From assembly GCA_017406955.1 (NCBI GenBank), contig JAFQXM010000009.1, positions 1 to 48,009 on the forward strand: DNA of 48,009 bases, written 5' to 3'. The first letter of the stretch is position 1. Every line of letters begins with the position of its first letter. Positions 38,490 to 46,781 of the stretch are shown piece after piece. Both the position numbers and the translations under genes were made by a program. This stretch comes from Bacilli bacterium. Its GTDB lineage: Bacteria > Bacillota_I > Bacilli_A > RF39 > UBA660. The notes under the pieces were generated by a model. That model saw only the letters and a list, made by a program, of their open reading frames with translations. It had not been told where the DNA came from and ran no database searches.

Positions 38490-38786
38490 ATGTTAAAAAT
38501 AGAATATCTACAAGAATTATTACTTGTATCTATAATTTTAAGCACTATTAGTTGTACTTTTGTACAAAAGACTAAAATACTATTTAAAAATAGTAAATAT
38601 TTAAATTTATATAGTTTTATAATTAATATATTATTAAGTATATTATTTTGTTATAATTTTACTAGTATTGGTTTAATATCCAGTATATGGGTTGGTTTAT
38701 TTTCTTATTTAGGGGCTGATTCTATATATAAAACTTTAGAAGGAAAGATACCATCTCATAATGATTTAGTAATAAATAGAAAATGA
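38490..38786 (+). CDS. Small membrane protein of unknown function
   Basis: 98 residues with three hydrophobic helices (about residues 8-25, 41-57 and 60-76) and a short polar C-terminus. No family recognised; the size and helices recall holin-like or small accessory membrane proteins, but nothing specific. AGAGATGA may be a weak Shine-Dalgarno. It is 32 bases before the CmpB-like gene. Confidence 0.6.
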   Translation: MLKIEYLQELLLVSIILSTISCTFVQKTKILFKNSKYLNLYSFIINILLSILFCYNFTSIGLISSIWVGLFSYLGADSIYKTLEGKIPSHNDLVINRK

Positions 38787-40340: not shown

Positions 40341-40369
40341 TTGTAAAAAAAGAAAAAAAAAGATATAAT
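40341..40369 (+). promoter_or_regulatory. Promoter of the type VII secretion operon
   Basis: TTGTAA, a 17-base spacer and TATAAT, about 40 bases before the essC start. Confidence 0.65.
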
Positions 40370-40407: not shown

Positions 40408-43400
40408 TGTTTGATAGTTAGACTTATTAAAAAAACACAAATATATAATTTTAATCTGCCAACTGAAGTATCAGGTAATTATTGGATTACTGATAATGAT
40501 TATTTAGGTAATGTACGAAATTTAATAAATATTGAAGAAAGTAATGGAAGATGGAAGATTAAAAGTAACTTTGAAACTAAGATTCTTTCTGGAGATAGAG
40601 AAGTTGAATCTGCTTATTTAAAAGATTATAGTTTATTTTTCTTAAAAATCAATACTGATAATGAGTATGTTATTTTATATTGTTCACCACTTTCTGATCA
40701 GAAAATCAATAGATTAAAAGTTAATGGTAATAAAGAATTAATTATAGGTAATGATTCAAAAGCTCATATAAGTTATAGTTATCCACTAGTTTCTAAACAA
40801 CATGCTAGATTAGTATATAATAATGGTAAATGGACTATTCAAGATTTAAATAGTAAATATGGTACATATGTTAATAATATTGCTGTTACTACTAAATCTT
40901 TGGAATATGGGGATATAATATTTATTATTGGTTTGAAAATTATAGTAATGGAAGATTATATAATAGTAAATAATATTGGTGAATTTACTAAATTTGATAA
41001 TAATACTTTTGAACTAATATCTTCAACTGTACAAAATCAAACAGAAGTAGATAATCCAGATGAAGAAGGAATGGAGTTTTATAAAGAAGAAGATTATTTC
41101 TATAGAGCACCAAGATTTAAAACAATGATAGAGGATGTTAATATTGTTATTGATCCACCACCTACAAAACAGCAAGGGGATAAAATGCCAGCTATATATA
41201 CTATTGGACCAATGATGACTATGGCTATGATGTCAGTCGCAATGGGATATTCTTCTTTGATGGGTGTTATAGACGGGACTAGAGATTTAAATGAAGCAAT
41301 GCCTACTTTGGTTATGTCTTTTGCTATGCTTGCTACAATGCTTTTATGGCCTATATTGTCTGATAAATATCAGAAAAAAATGGAGAAAAGAAAAGAGCAA
41401 TTAAGGCAAAATAAATATACAGAATATATCAACAAAACTAGAGAAAAAATTGCATCAGAGATGAAAATACAAAGACAAATTTTAATAGATAATTATTTAC
41501 CACTAGATGTTACTAAGAACATTATTTTTGCGAAAAAGAGAAATCTTTGGGAAAGAGAAATTGATCAAGAGGATTTCTTAGATTTACGTTTGGGTATTGG
41601 TTCTACTGAATTACAGGGTATAGTATCTTTTCCAGAAGAACATTTTGCTTTAGAAGATGATAATCTATTACAAGAAGTTTATAAATTAGGAGCAGAATCT
41701 AGACTGTTAGAAAATGTACCTATTTCTACATCTTTTGTTAAAAGAAATATTTCTGCCATAATAGGAACTGGTAGTAATAAGCAAAAGTTTATCGAAGGAT
41801 TAATACTTCAAATGATTGCGTATCATAGTTATGAAGACTTGAAAATAATTATGTTAACTAATGAGAAAAACGAATCTAAATGGGATTATTTGAAGGTTTT
41901 ACCTCATTGTTGGAGTAATGATAAAAGCACTAGATATTTTGCATCAACTATTGATGAGGCAAAGGAAATATCTTTAAATTTAGCTCAAGAAGTACAAAGA
42001 CGTAGATTTAAAGATAATAATGGTACTATGGAAGCTAATACAGAAGATTATCACAAATATAAACCTTATTATGTAATAATAACTGATGATTATAAGTCTT
42101 TAAGAGATGTTGAATTAGTTAAAGATGTTGCGGAAATGGATGTTAATGTAGGGTTTAGTTTAATAGTAATTAGTCCTAGACTTATAAATGTTCCTAATGA
42201 ATGTAATACTTTTATCAGTATTGGAGATAAAAAATCAGGTATATTTGAAAATGAGTTAGTTTCTAATAAGCAAAAAGAATTTATTGCTGATTATGATGAT
42301 TCATTGAATATGTATGAAGCTTGTAAAATGCTTGCTAATATTCCTATTGATATAGCTAAGGCTTCAAGAAATTTACCTAATGGACTTAGTTTTTTGGAAA
42401 TGTATAATGTTGGAATGATAGAACAATTAAATATTCAAAATAGATGGAAATCTAATGATCCAACCAAATCATTGCAAGCTCCAGTGGGTATAGATAAAGC
42501 TCACGAATTATTTAAACTTGATTTACATGAAAAATTCTATGGACCACATGGTTTGATTGCAGGTATGACTGGATCTGGTAAATCTGAATTTATTATTAGT
42601 TATGTTTTATCTATGGCACTGAATTATCATCCATATGAAGTATCTTTTGTACTTATTGATTATAAAGGTGGGGGACTTGCTGGTGTATTCCAAAACAAAG
42701 AAACAGGTATTAAATTACCACATCTAGCTGGTACTATCACTAATCTAGATACAGTTGAGATGAATAGAGCCTTAGCATCTATTGAGAGTGAACTTAGAAG
42801 ACGTCAAAGGAAATTTAATGAAGCTAGAGACAAATTGAATGAAAGTACTATTGATATTTATAAGTATCAATCTCTTTATAGGAAAGGATTAGTTAAAGAA
42901 CCTATTTCACATTTATTTATTATAAGTGATGAGTTTGCAGAACTTAAAGATCAACAGCCAGATTTTATGGATCAATTAATTTCTACTGCTCGTATTGGAC
43001 GTAGTTTAGGAGTTCATTTGATACTTGCGACACAAAAACCTGCTGGTGTAGTTAATGATCAAATTTGGTCAAACTCAAAATTTAGAGTATGTTTAAAAGT
43101 TCAAGATAAAGCAGATAGTATGGATATGATTAAATGTCCGGATGCTGCAGCTTTAAAAAATCCAGGAAGGTTTTATTTACAAGTTGGATATAATGAATTG
43201 TTTGCTTTAGGACAAGCTGCTTGGGCAGGGGCACAATATTATCCAACAGAAAAAAGGAAGAAAAAATTAGATCAAGCAATTGACTTCTTAGATAATGTCG
43301 GTAATCGTATTAAATCATTAGAAATAGAAAACAATAGTGTATCTGAAGAACAATCTAAAGGTGAAGAAGTCACAAATATTGTTAAATATATAGTTGATGA

Positions 43401-45015
43401 GGCAAATAAAGAATCAATTACAATACCTCAATTATGGTTAGATAGAATACCTAATGTGATATATATCAAAGATTTAAAAGAAAAATATAATCATATAGAG
43501 GAAAGAAATAATATTAATCCTATCATTGGTGAATATGATGATCCTTCAAATCAGCAACAAGGAGCATTAACTTTACCAATATCACAAGGTGGTAATACTA
43601 TAATATATGGTTCTACTGGTAGTGGAAAAGAATTAATGCTTTCTAGTATTATATATTCTACTATTATTAACCATTTAGCTGATGAAATTAATTTCTATCT
43701 TTTAGATTTTGGTGCGGAGACTCTTAATATGTTTAAGGAAGCACCACAAGTTGGAGAAGTGTTATTATCTGATGATGATGAAAAGATTACTAACTTATTT
43801 AAATTTTTGGATAGAACTATCGAAGAAAGAAAAAAATTATTTGTAGAGTATAATGGTTCATATGATTTTTATATAAATCATGGTGGTATTCAAATACCTA
43901 TGATTGCGGTAGTTATAAATAATTATGAAGGATTTGCTGATACTTATCCTGATTATGAAGATTTAATTAGTCAACTTACTAGGGATTGTTTAAAATATGG
44001 AATTGTCTTTATTTTAACTACTAGTGGTCCTAATAATATAAGATATAGATTACAACAAAACTTTGGACAAAGTTTAGTATTACAATTTAATGATCCTTCA
44101 GATTATGCATCTGTTTTAAATGGAGTTAGGAAGAAAGAACCATCTAAGGTATTTGGTCGTGGTCTAGTAGATTTAGATGATGTATTTGAATTTCAAACAG
44201 CTTATCCATATAGAGAAGAACAAATGACTGAATATATTAGAATAGTATGTAATAAATTAAATGCTATTTGTAGTACTAAGGCTACTAGAATTCCAGTTTT
44301 ACCTCCAGCTGTGACATTTGATACGGTGACAGATTATATAGGTAAACTTAATACTATACCTATTGGTATAGAAAAAGAATCTTTATTAACATCTACTATA
44401 AACTTAGATAGAAGTAGTGGATATACTATAACTGGTGATGATATAGATGGTAATCCAGTATTCATTCAGGGATTAGCAAAAGTTATTAAGAAGATTAATA
44501 ATACTAATGTAATTATTATGGATGTTATGTCTAGTTTAAATAAGGAATCTTTAAAGGAAATAGTTTATGAGGAGGATAGTTGTTCTAGAACAATTAAAGC
44601 TATTAAAGATTTATATAATAAAGAGAAAGTTAGTAGTAAAGTAGATCCAACTAAACTTAGTTCTATGCCTAAAACTATTTGTATTATAAATGGATTAACA
44701 TCTTTACTAGAAAAACTTGATATAGAGGAAAAAACAACATTTACTAATATAATTAAAGATTCTAAGAATTTAGGAACATTTAAGTTTATAATTATTGATA
44801 ATATTGACAATATAAAATCTTTAACATATGAAGATTGGTATAAAACAACTTTTGATTTAAGTGAAGGAATATGGATAGGTAACGGTATATCTAATCAGTT
44901 TACTTTACGAGTTACTACTAATTCTAGAGAATTACGTGAAGAAATAGAAGCTCCATTTGGGTATGTTATCGAAAAGGGTAAAGCTGTTCAAGTTAAATTG
45001 ATAGTGGATGAATAG
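40408..45015 (+). CDS. essC: Type VII secretion system ATPase EssC
   Basis: 1535 residues in the order: N-terminal FHA-like region (1-90), a second clear FHA domain (about 95-165, with SKQHARLVY and LNSKYGTYVNN), two membrane helices (about 262-285 and 297-318), then FtsK/SpoIIIE-type ATPase domains. Domain 1 has intact Walker A GMTGSGKS (from residue 719) and Walker B LFIISDEFAEL. Domain 2 has GSTGSGKE (from residue 1068), where Glu replaces Ser/Thr. Domain 3 has no P-loop. In T7SSb systems EssC drives export of WXG100 and LXG proteins. The start is TTG 40408 behind GGTTGGTG; GTG 40399 lies inside the site. Confidence 0.93.
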   Translation, partial: CLIVRLIKKTQIYNFNLPTEVSGNYWITDNDYLGNVRNLINIEESNGRWKIKSNFETKILSGDREVESAYLKDYSLFFLKINTDNEYVILYCSPLSDQKINRLKVNGNKELIIGNDSKAHISYSYPLVSKQHARLVYNNGKWTIQDLNSKYGTYVNNIAVTTKSLEYGDIIFIIGLKIIVMEDYIIVNNIGEFTKFDNNTFELISSTVQNQTEVDNPDEEGMEFYKEEDYFYRAPRFKTMIEDVNIVIDPPPTKQQGDKMPAIYTIGPMMTMAMMSVAMGYSSLMGVIDGTRDLNEAMPTLVMSFAMLATMLLWPILSDKYQKKMEKRKEQLRQNKYTEYINKTREKIASEMKIQRQILIDNYLPLDVTKNIIFAKKRNLWEREIDQEDFLDLRLGIGSTELQGIVSFPEEHFALEDDNLLQEVYKLGAESRLLENVPISTSFVKRNISAIIGTGSNKQKFIEGLILQMIAYHSYEDLKIIMLTNEKNESKWDYLKVLPHCWSNDKSTRYFASTIDEAKEISLNLAQEVQRRRFKDNNGTMEANTEDYHKYKPYYVIITDDYKSLRDVELVKDVAEMDVNVGFSLIVISPRLINVPNECNTFISIGDKKSGIFENELVSNKQKEFIADYDDSLNMYEACKMLANIPIDIAKASRNLPNGLSFLEMYNVGMIEQLNIQNRWKSNDPTKSLQAPVGIDKAHELFKLDLHEKFYGPHGLIAGMTGSGKSEFIISYVLSMALNYHPYEVSFVLIDYKGGGLAGVFQNKETGIKLPHLAGTITNLDTVEMNRALASIESELRRRQRKFNEARDKLNESTIDIYKYQSLYRKGLVKEPISHLFIISDEFAELKDQQPDFMDQLISTARIGRSLGVHLILATQKPAGVVNDQIWSNSKFRVCLKVQDKADSMDMIKCPDAAALKNPGRFYLQVGYNELFALGQAAWAGAQYYPTEKRKKKLDQAIDFLDNVGNRIKSLEIENNSVSEEQSKGEEVTNIVKYIVDEANKESITIPQLWLDRIPNVIYIKDLKEKYNHIEERNNINPIIGEYDDPSNQQQGALTLPISQGGNTIIYGSTGSGKELMLSSIIYSTIINHLADEINFYLLDFGAETLNMFKEAPQVGEVLLSDDDEKITNLFKFLDRTIEERKKLFVEYNGSYDFYINHGGIQIPMIAVVINNYEGFADTYPDYEDLISQLTRDCLKYGIVFILTTSGPNNIRYRLQQNFGQSLVLQFNDPSDYASVLNGVRKKEPSKVFGRGLVDLDDVFEFQTAYPYREEQMTEYIRIVCNKLNAICSTKATRIPVLPPAVTFDTVTDYIGKLNTIPIGIEKESLLTSTINLDRSSGYTITGDDIDGNPVFIQGLAKVIKKINNTNVIIMDVMSSLNKESLKEIVYEEDSCSRTIKAIKDLYNKEKVSSKVDPTKLSSMPKTICIINGLTSLLEKLDIEEKTTFTNIIKDSKNLGTFKFIIIDNIDNIKSLTYEDWYKTTFDLSEGIWIGNGISNQFTLRVTTNSRELREEIEAPFGYVIEKGKAVQVKLIVDE

Positions 45016-45024
45016 GAGGTATTT

Positions 45025-45279
45025 ATGAATAATAAAATATTAATTGAGTTATATATTCCTCTTATAGAGAGAAACTATGATTTATATATTCCTATTAATA
45101 AAAAAGTAGGAACTATAAAGAAATTAATAGAACGCGGATTAGTAGAGTTAACAGATAAAGCATATGTAGTAAAAGAAGATGCTAATTTTTATAGTAAAGA
45201 AACAGGAAAAATATATGACGTTAATGAAACAGTAAGAGATACAGACTTAAAAAATGGATCTAAAATAGTTTTAATATAA
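45025..45279 (+). CDS. esaB: YukD/EsaB ubiquitin-like type VII secretion protein
   Basis: 84 residues with a beta-grasp (ubiquitin-like) pattern: two opening strands (KILIELYIPLIERNYDLYIP), a helix (TIKKLIERGLVEL), and the closing L-K-N-G-S-K-I-V-L-I. This is the YukD/EsaB family, a core cytoplasmic partner of T7SSb in Bacillota. It starts nine bases after essC with AGGAGGT, so it is co-translated with the ATPase. Confidence 0.85.
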   Translation: MNNKILIELYIPLIERNYDLYIPINKKVGTIKKLIERGLVELTDKAYVVKEDANFYSKETGKIYDVNETVRDTDLKNGSKIVLI

Positions 45280-45290
45280 GGTGGGATTAT

Positions 45291-45497
45291 ATGTCAGATT
45301 ATAAAGATTATGTTAATTCAGTAAACAAAATATTTGATTGTGTTAAAATTATGAAATCTAAATGGGATAATCCTGATAATTTAAATTATTTAGGGAAAAT
45401 AGAAGATTATAAGAGTGTTGTTATAGAAATATCTAGAAAACTAAAACAAGAGTCTAAATCTTCTAATAATTTGGAGGCTTTAGATAATGATAGATAA
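45291..45497 (+). CDS. Small helical protein in the type VII operon (WXG100-like?)
   Basis: 68 residues, nearly all helix. It carries the hairpin-like stretch KSKWDNPDNLNYL, where W-D-N stands about where the W-x-G turn of WXG100 substrates would be, between two helices. It is shorter than the usual 95-100 residues. The position directly after esaB suggests a substrate or accessory subunit, but no family was recognised with certainty. The start follows AGGTGG and its end overlaps the next gene. Confidence 0.65.
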   Translation: MSDYKDYVNSVNKIFDCVKIMKSKWDNPDNLNYLGKIEDYKSVVIEISRKLKQESKSSNNLEALDNDR

Positions 45498-45705
45498 GAA
45501 AGATTATAATGATATTTTAAAAGTATCTAAAGAAATTGAAGAAGCTGCTAACACAATTAACAAAATTGCTAAACAAAATAATATAGAAGATTTAGGTGAT
45601 TTTATTTCTACTGTTTTAGGTTATTCAAAGTATTTAAATACAACTGTAGAATTATATAAAGACGCAGATTTTGCTTTAAGTACTTTAGAAAATAATAAAA
45701 AATAG
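45487..45705 (+). CDS. Second small helical protein in the type VII operon
   Basis: 72 residues, two predicted helices (about residues 5-30 and 34-68) joined by a short turn at NNIEDLGD, with no W-x-G. No family recognised. It overlaps the preceding gene by 11 bases and has GGAGG upstream, so translation is coupled. The pair of small helical proteins is reminiscent of heterodimeric Esx partners (inference). A terminator follows. Confidence 0.65.
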   Translation: MIDKKDYNDILKVSKEIEEAANTINKIAKQNNIEDLGDFISTVLGYSKYLNTTVELYKDADFALSTLENNKK

Positions 45706-45729
45706 AACTTCCATTAAGGAAGTTCTTTT
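45705..45729. terminator. Bidirectional terminator between the type VII operon and the SpoIID-like gene
   Basis: GAACTTCC and GGAAGTTC with a five-base loop, followed by TTTT on the plus strand and preceded by AT-rich sequence. Confidence 0.8.
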
Positions 45730-46781
45730 ATATATTTTTTGAATTTAACTTTAGGAAAGTAGTAATGTATTATATTACTATAATCACAACCATTAATAGC
45801 TAATTCATTAGAACCAAATATACTTAATCCTAAGAAATCTCCCCAACCCCTACTTATAAAGCATATATTATCTTTATTGATTATAATATTAATGTATAGT
45901 GATTTTAGATTTAGTTTATCTTTAAAGGTTTTACCATCTATAATGGATTTACCTATTTGAATTTTTAAAATTTTACCATATGGAGAAGTTTCTAATATTT
46001 TAATTTTAGTATCTTTATCAATCTTTATCTTAAATATATCACTTAAAACAGAATATTTAATTTTTTTAGTTTCCAAGTAATAGGGTGAAGAGAAATCCCA
46101 AAGACTATATACTCCAGATAAATATGGATATCTACTATCTTTTAAAGTTAATCCATTATTAGTCATATGAATAAATGGTAAAATATAATAATTGTTATAA
46201 GTTACAAAAATACAATTAGTTTCATCAATAGCTTTTTCGTACAATTTGATCATATCATTATAATTAGGAGTTAAAGATAATTTATAATAAGAAATAGGTT
46301 TATATAAACTAAAGCTATCAATAGCTTCTATTATTTTATCTTCATGCATCTTTTTAAAAGCATAAGTTCTATAAAGAACAGCTAAAGCTTTCAATACTTC
46401 AATATTTAAATCAGGGATAGAGTTAGTCGCAAGTACTCCTAATAAATAATCTTTTAAACTAATTTCTACAATGGCGTTACTTTCTAATTTTAGTGTTACT
46501 AAATAATGTTCATTTGAATAATATAAGTCATCTTTTAATAACTCTATATCTTCAGTAGTATTAATCTCAAAACTTTTAACCATAACGCCATCTACTATTA
46601 AATAAACTTTACCACTATTAAAATTAATATTGTTGTTCTTAATAAAATTTTTAGTTCTTCTTTTAATTTCAGTATCATTAGATTTTAATCCCAATTCACG
46701 AGAAAATTCATAATTCATAGTTAAGTATAAGTATAGAATGTTTTCATTTCTATCTTTTTTTATTTCATATTTATAAAACAT
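45714..46781 (-). CDS. SpoIID/LytB-like protein lacking the catalytic glutamate
   Basis: 355 residues. The SpoIID core is visible: ISLKDYLLGVLATN, then EVLKALAVLYRTYAF, then IHMTNNGLTLKDS with YPYLSGVYSLWDFSSP, and a terminal GWGDFLGLSIFGSNELAINGC. SpoIID is a lytic transglycosylase that trims peptidoglycan in engulfment. Here the residue aligned with the catalytic Glu (A-x-E-M-P) is Asn120, and the GWGHG histidine is Asp315. No signal peptide or membrane helix is seen at the N-terminus. It is likely a non-enzymatic or changed derivative. The start ATG follows TAGGTGATACT. Confidence 0.75.
   Translation of the reverse strand: MFYKYEIKKDRNENILYLYLTMNYEFSRELGLKSNDTEIKRRTKNFIKNNNINFNSGKVYLIVDGVMVKSFEINTTEDIELLKDDLYYSNEHYLVTLKLESNAIVEISLKDYLLGVLATNSIPDLNIEVLKALAVLYRTYAFKKMHEDKIIEAIDSFSLYKPISYYKLSLTPNYNDMIKLYEKAIDETNCIFVTYNNYYILPFIHMTNNGLTLKDSRYPYLSGVYSLWDFSSPYYLETKKIKYSVLSDIFKIKIDKDTKIKILETSPYGKILKIQIGKSIIDGKTFKDKLNLKSLYINIIINKDNICFISRGWGDFLGLSIFGSNELAINGCDYSNIIHYYFPKVKFKKYIKELP

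What the first reader, a model, noticed from the sequence alone, without database searches (positions are those of the whole stretch)
40408..45705. Stripped-down type VII secretion operon with two undescribed small proteins
Canonical T7SSb loci have esxA, esaA, essA, esaB, essB and essC. This operon has only essC, esaB and two small helical proteins (68 and 72 residues) followed by a terminator, and begins with its own promoter. EssB, EssA and EsaA are not encoded here. Domain 2 of EssC has a non-canonical P-loop and domain 3 has none. The small proteins could be reduced Esx partners or new subunits, so this may be a minimal or divergent secretion system.
Basis: partly seen in the sequence, partly recalled or inferred. 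Interest (0 to 1): 0.68.

Follow-up and report, generated by a model that had tools for sequence, protein, structure and literature searches.

The report
Pared-down secretion operon with shrunken pair
A gut bacterium related to Bacillus carries a very simple version of a known protein-export machine, and the two unnamed small proteins beside it are shrunken relatives of the usual pair of small carrier proteins, apparently keeping only the end that carries the export signal.

Summary
The four-gene operon is real: EssC (TTG start at 40411), EsaB, and 68- and 72-residue proteins (s68, s72), then a terminator. EsaB is confirmed by predicted ubiquitin-like fold (YukD, EccD). The genome has one full-length EssC and no EssB, EssA or EsaA over cut-off. 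This absence marks the whole order (EssB 0/146 genomes, 67 of them with EssC); outside the order, all five EssC genomes in a class sample have EssB beside EssC. s68 and s72 occur in 58 EssC loci, under purifying selection, forming one EssC clade. Profiles built only from the short forms find full-length WXG100-type proteins: s68 the first, s72 the second of the pair that follows EsaB in relatives. s68 lost about 16 N-terminal and 22-38 C-terminal residues; s72 lost about 25-28 at the hairpin turn. In an antiparallel Esx dimer these cuts shorten the same end of the bundle and leave one composite export signal (s68 Trp, s72 Asp61). Full-size Esx genes sit in a separate cluster with DUF4176. Best reading: a new EssB-free T7SS variant whose core Esx pair was trimmed at one end. 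No function was tested.

The parts
40341..40369 (+). promoter-like TTGTAA-17-TATAAT upstream of essC
   Evidence: consensus match only, number of such sites in the region equals chance
40411..45015 (+). essC (T7SS ATPase; TTG start at 40411, ORF open from 40399)
   Evidence: TIGR03928 1030 bits; matches YukB 9qks E 3e-115; start set by relatives beginning MIVRLIKK
40741..40920 (+). FHA domain of EssC; two expected phosphothreonine-binding residues replaced (IGR to IGN, NGT to YGT)
   Evidence: Pfam FHA 54 bits; column counts
41194..41358 (+). two predicted transmembrane helices of EssC
   Evidence: hydropathy
42562..42591 (+). D1 Walker A GMTGSGKSEF; GSGKSE at 100% in each column over 135 EssC (sequences were selected by that motif)
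43606..43641 (+). D2 Walker A-like GSTGSGKE; Lys+1 is Glu in 52/52 short-pair and 65/83 other EssC
45025..45279 (+). esaB (84 aa, ubiquitin-like, EsaB/YukD)
   Evidence: predicted fold pLDDT 93, Z 11.0 to YukD 2bps and Z 12.0 to EccD5; beside essC in most relatives
45291..45497 (+). s68: shortened first Esx protein (68 aa)
   Evidence: clean profile finds full-length Esx down to E 9e-8; dN/dS 0.06-0.46
45363..45365 (+). Trp25 of s68, equivalent to the W of WxG (W in 40 of 53; the Gly position is Asn, Ser or Asp in 50 of 53)
45487..45705 (+). s72: shortened second Esx protein (72 aa), overlaps s68 by 11 bases
   Evidence: clean profile finds full-length second Esx down to E 8e-7; dN/dS 0.07-0.51
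45667..45669 (+). Asp61 of s72, equivalent to the acidic residue of the C-terminal export motif, 53 of 53
45704..45726 (.). bidirectional intrinsic terminator shared with the converging SpoIID-like gene

Best explanation
The operon encodes the core of a type VII secretion variant lacking EssB, EssA and EsaA: EssC is the membrane ATPase and channel, EsaB its ubiquitin-like partner, and s68-s72 the core Esx pair. SHOWN: gene content, conservation, absence of the three membrane proteins over the order, homology of s68 and s72 to the first and second full-length Esx proteins, and the pattern of shortening. INFERRED: s68 and s72 form an antiparallel heterodimer. In such a dimer the turn of one hairpin lies at the end where the termini of the other lie, so loss of s68's termini and of s72's turn shortens one and the same end of the four-helix bundle. 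[quoted passage not shown] The pair would dock on EssC by this end, switch it on, and be exported or act as a switch, while full-size Esx pairs encoded elsewhere, with a DUF4176 chaperone, accompany the actual cargo.
For: EssB, EssA and EsaA: 0 of 146 genomes over cut-off each. Control: 5 of 5 EssC genomes of a class sample outside the order have EssB on the same contig, within about 3 kb of EssC; 0 of 16 in the order-side part of that sample. Short pair in 58 loci, 53 distinct, ATGA-type 4-base overlap of s68 and s72 in 30 of 53. Profiles of the short forms alone hit full-length WXG100-type proteins down to E 9e-8 (s68) and 8e-7 (s72); profile-profile E 1.7e-5 (s68 to first Esx) and 7e-8 (s72 to second Esx), with most control families far weaker. 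Alignments: s68 no inner gap, N-terminal loss 15-17 in most, C-terminal loss 22-38; s72 loses 25-28 residues inside with the ends kept. EssC of short-pair loci is one clade (one change, support 100) next to lineages with full-size pairs. Fused s68-s72 model: pLDDT 81, pTM 0.55, four helices, Z about 11 to ferritin-type bundles made of two antiparallel hairpins. dN/dS below 0.52 for s68 and s72. Export-signal framework: PMC13355648.
Against: No secretion was tested. The WxG glycine is almost never kept and the residue four before Asp61 is Asn in 35 of 53. The dimer was modelled as a fused chain; helical bundles give high Z to many unrelated folds. Some full-length second Esx (L059, L060, L064) need only 14 extra residues in the alignment. 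An EssB replacement unrecognisable by sequence could exist elsewhere in the genome: EssC keeps an FHA domain, whose known partner is EssB.
Confidence: 0.72

Rival explanations
1. s68 and s72 are descended from an Esx pair but are no longer exported: they are a permanent cytosolic adaptor or gate subunit of EssC, and all secretion is done through the full-size Esx pairs encoded elsewhere.
For: Every short-pair genome checked has a DUF4176 cluster elsewhere, in most of those read with full-size Esx genes; the glycine of WxG is lost; the pair always sits in the core operon.
Against: Trp and the acidic residue of the export signal are the parts that were kept; in other lineages of the order the pair at this place is full-size and WXG100-like.
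Confidence: 0.25
2. The machine is not EssB-free: an unrelated or extremely diverged membrane protein encoded elsewhere does the work of EssB, so the operon only looks minimal.
For: EssC keeps its FHA domain, with phosphothreonine-binding residues changed; in T7SSc-j other membrane proteins stand in for EssB (PMC11217815).
Against: No conserved membrane gene recurs beside EssC over the neighbourhoods read, apart from EsaB and Esx genes.
Confidence: 0.4
3. The operon is a decaying remnant.
For: Small genome; loss of three canonical components; short Esx genes.
Against: Intact EssC frame and D1 Walker motifs, dN/dS 0.02-0.5 for EsaB, s68 and s72, same order in 58 loci.
Confidence: 0.03

Closest known systems
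T7SSb (Ess/Yuk system of S. aureus, B. subtilis, S. intermedius)
   Same: EssC with FHA, two transmembrane helices and ATPase domains, D1 the only canonical Walker A; EsaB; Esx proteins; DUF4176 (Ltc chaperone) associated with substrates
   Different: No EssB, EssA or EsaA; core Esx is a pair rather than one homodimeric EsxA, and here only 68 and 72 residues
T7SSg and the other T7SSc-T7SSj subtypes (Garrett, Higginson, Palmer 2024, PMC11217815)
   Same: ATPase plus ubiquitin-like protein plus WXG100 proteins without EssB; T7SSg also has a WXG100 pair and few components
   Different: T7SSg ATPase lacks FHA and has TsgL and Tad genes beside it; none seen here. That survey used RefSeq and its text does not mention Tenericutes, Mollicutes, Erysipelotrichia or metagenomes
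EsxA-EsxB heterodimer of T7SSa and EsxA homodimer of T7SSb
   Same: helical hairpins, W at the turn and acidic residue near the partner's C-terminus
   Different: about 100 residues each with a longer bundle; the homodimer has two export signals, here one at most

Membership tests
T7SSb | EssC/FtsK-type ATPase with FHA and transmembrane helices | tested here: met
   TIGR03928 1030 bits, FHA 54 bits, YukB match
T7SSb | EsaB/YukD ubiquitin-like protein | tested here: met
   predicted fold, Z 11.0 to 2bps; Pfam YukD only weakly, 4 of 16 relatives, best E 0.009
T7SSb | EssB/YukC | tested here: not met
   0 of 146 over cut-off in the order; adjacent in 5 of 5 EssC genomes outside it
T7SSb | EssA | tested here: not met
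   TIGR03927 0 of 146 over cut-off
T7SSb | EsaA | tested here: not met
   TIGR03929 0 of 146 over cut-off, no match at all in the own genome
T7SSb | LXG effectors | tested here: inconclusive
   PF04740 absent from the own genome; a DUF4176-linked 418-aa protein could be a diverged substrate
WXG100 (EsxA) family | about 100 residues and match to PF06013 | tested here: not met
   median length 68 and 72; no Pfam WXG100 match
WXG100 (EsxA) family | descent from full-length Esx proteins | tested here: met
WXG100 (EsxA) family | W-x-G at the turn | tested here: not met
   W in 40 of 53 s68, Gly in 1 of 53; s72 lacks the turn
WXG100 (EsxA) family | acidic residue of the C-terminal export motif | tested here: met
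   Asp61 of s72 in 53 of 53; the residue four before it is not hydrophobic in most
WXG100 (EsxA) family | four-helix antiparallel dimer | tested here: inconclusive
   fused-chain model only
WXG100 (EsxA) family | secreted by the T7SS | not testable with these tools
   needs an experiment
T7SSg | ATPase without FHA, with WXG100 pair, TsgB and TsgL | tested here: not met
   FHA present; neighbours are ribosomal genes, ZIP, SpoIID-like and phospholipase-like genes

The most novel reading that the evidence does not exclude
Probability: 0.5. Interest if true: 0.75.

Novelty: new variant of a known kind. Interest (0 to 1): 0.62.

Why it matters
EssB, EssA and EsaA are treated as core membrane components of T7SSb. 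A whole order that keeps EssC, EsaB and Esx proteins but none of the three asks what the membrane part of the channel minimally needs. The one-ended shortening of the Esx pair is a natural deletion experiment: it keeps what crystallography and mutation in S. intermedius identify as the export signal and drops the rest, making 'which end of the Esx dimer matters' directly testable with two small soluble proteins.

Tried and rejected
Pfam and NCBIfam on s68 and s72: only chance matches. First fused alignment (A1) misplaced s68 rows over s72 and was dropped for A3. EsaB profile against PDB sequences: nothing, solved by fold. Weak EssB hits (6 genomes, 41-100 model positions, four with stops inside) and EssA hits (37 genomes, mostly the C-terminal part, none over cut-off) taken as chance. 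EsaA-like hits in 10 genomes, up to 74 bits against a cut-off of 122, do not follow EssC and look like YhgE/Pip-type proteins (inference). Foldseek on the fused model found no significant match and no Esx chain among the rows shown; the list is all ferritin-type bundles, which neither supports nor excludes Esx. A decaying locus was rejected on selection and conservation. Paper searches for T7SS in RF39/Tenericutes or for shortened WXG100 proteins found nothing relevant.

Full report
What is there. The window holds essC (likely TTG start 40411; ORF open from 40399), esaB 45025-45279, a 68-aa gene 45291-45497 (s68), a 72-aa gene 45487-45705 (s72), and a bidirectional terminator 45704-45726 shared with a converging SpoIID-like gene. 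EssC scores 1030 bits with TIGR03928 and aligns with B. subtilis YukB in the recent structure 9qks (E 3e-115). The 84-aa protein has no Pfam match of its own, but its model (pLDDT 93) has the ubiquitin-like fold of YukD (Z 11.0) and of the EccD5 domain (Z 12.0). In this order GKE is the rule in D2 (52 of 52 short-pair EssC, 65 of 83 others).

Missing parts. No EssB, EssA or EsaA is found over cut-off in the genome (1.14 Mb, about 94% complete). This is not a loss in this genome: over 146 genomes and 76 genera of the order, EssB, EssA and EsaA are over cut-off in none, while 67 have full EssC. The search itself works: in a class-wide sample all five EssC genomes outside the order have EssB on the same contig beside EssC, and none of the 16 inside do. 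The neighbourhoods of the EssC loci share EssC, EsaB and, variably, WXG100-type proteins and DUF4176, with no recurrent membrane gene. Named relatives are uncultured Bacilli, Tenericutes or 'Erysipelotrichaceae' metagenome genomes, many from ruminant and rabbit gut; by size and source I take the order to be RF39 (inference, not shown by a tool).

What the small proteins are. s68 and s72 follow EsaB in 58 EssC loci (53 distinct pairs), usually with a 4-base overlap between them (30 of 53). In the genomes with longer context they lie in a conserved neighbourhood (rplM-rpsI ... ZIP-EssC-EsaB-s68-s72-SpoIID-like). Both are under purifying selection (dN/dS 0.06-0.46 and 0.07-0.51). Neither is recognised by Pfam. 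In other lineages of the order the same place after EsaB holds a pair of full-size WXG100-type proteins. Profiles made only from the short forms, searched against all open frames of the loci, find beyond themselves full-length WXG100-type proteins: s68 finds first-position Esx down to E 9e-8, s72 second-position Esx down to E 8e-7. Profile-profile comparison gives the same pairing (s68 with first Esx E 1.7e-5; s72 with second Esx E 7e-8); of about 40 other families nearly all give E above 0.01, and the exceptions (c31, c49) are small helical families that lie next to Esx genes. On an EssC tree of 135 sequences the short-pair loci are one clade (one change, support 100), inside a group of 82 whose other members include full-size pairs. 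So the pair most likely shrank once.

How it shrank. In the alignments s68 has no inner gap against full-length Esx but starts about 16 residues late and ends 22-38 residues early; s72 keeps both ends and lacks 25-28 residues at the hairpin turn in the best matches (14 in the L059/L060 type). In known Esx dimers the hairpins are antiparallel, head to tail, so the turn of one lies at the termini of the other. The two kinds of loss therefore remove the same end of the bundle. [quoted passage not shown] The end kept here carries s68 Trp25 (Trp in 40 of 53) and s72 Asp61 (53 of 53); the end lost carried the other signal. The glycine of WxG is gone (Asn, Ser or Asp in 50 of 53) and the position four before Asp61 is mostly Asn, so the signal is altered. 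An AlphaFold2 model of the two proteins read as one chain (a single AGAT word read as Arg joins the frames; 34-row alignment) has four helices, pLDDT 81, pTM 0.55, and aligns over its whole length with ferritin-type bundles, which consist of two antiparallel hairpins (Z 11). This agrees with an Esx-like dimer but helical bundles match widely, so it is weak evidence.

The rest of the system. The own genome has one WXG100 match outside the window, on contig 11: genes for Esx proteins of 107 and 94 aa, then 157 aa, a 418-aa Ser/Asp/Glu-rich protein with a glycine-zipper-like hydrophobic stretch, and DUF4176 (95 bits). DUF4176 proteins are Ltc chaperones of LXG toxins that bind a disordered region (PMC13355648). 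All nine short-pair genomes searched have DUF4176 genes outside the essC operon, and most of those read have full-size Esx genes beside them. No LXG domain is found in the own genome. I infer that these clusters encode the cargo and its targeting partners, and that the operon in the window encodes the machine with its core Esx pair.

Mechanism and doubt. Most likely EssC, helped by EsaB, is switched on by the s68-s72 dimer and exports cargo brought by the full-size Esx pairs. Whether s68-s72 is itself exported is open. Whether the machine truly works without an EssB-like protein is also open: EssC keeps its FHA domain, whose partner in T7SSb is EssB, with two phosphothreonine-binding residues replaced, so an unrecognised partner may exist.

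Known or new. The closest described systems are T7SSb and the subtypes T7SSc-T7SSj (PMC11217815), a RefSeq survey whose text does not mention these bacteria. The defining T7SSb parts EssB, EssA and EsaA were tested and not met; T7SSg was not met because of FHA. I therefore file it as a new variant of type VII secretion, with a core Esx pair shortened from one end as the new element.

Noticed in passing
L077:7415-10226 (own genome, contig 11, 87414-90225, minus strand): Remote Esx cluster: Esx 107 aa, Esx 94 aa, 157 aa, 418 aa (Ser/Asp/Glu-rich with hydrophobic AILGVGAAGAAGFAGVRY), DUF4176; candidate substrate cluster of this secretion system.
   Followed up: partly
L105:5939-6340, L151:13387-13779, L158:5587-5985, L159:13448-14008, L177:13308-13853: In one subclade the s68 protein carries a long proline- or glutamate-rich C-terminal extension (130-186 aa in all), although the Esx core stays short.
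   Followed up: no
L063, L068, L074, L084, L109, L112, L115 near EssC: A family of about 580-710 aa with a P-loop, looking like a HerA/DUF87-type ATPase, recurs near EssC in seven loci of the order (family f15).
   Followed up: no
L124 (G055 contig 10): Two further EssC copies in tandem in a genome that also has the short-pair EssC; one is split by an in-frame TAA.
   Followed up: no
window 40741-40920: EssC FHA domain kept although its T7SSb partner EssB is absent; Arg of IGR and Asn of NGT are replaced (Asn and Tyr) in the short-pair clade.
   Followed up: partly
window 38490-38786 and 45714-46781: A small membrane protein weakly like phage holin Hol118 and a SpoIID/LytB-like gene are syntenic with this operon in many relatives.
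   Followed up: no
G130:C1:197567, G054:C39:707 and eight more genomes of the order: Proteins of 590-690 aa with 42-74 bits to the EsaA N-terminal model, below cut-off and not tied to EssC presence; perhaps YhgE/Pip-like.
   Followed up: no
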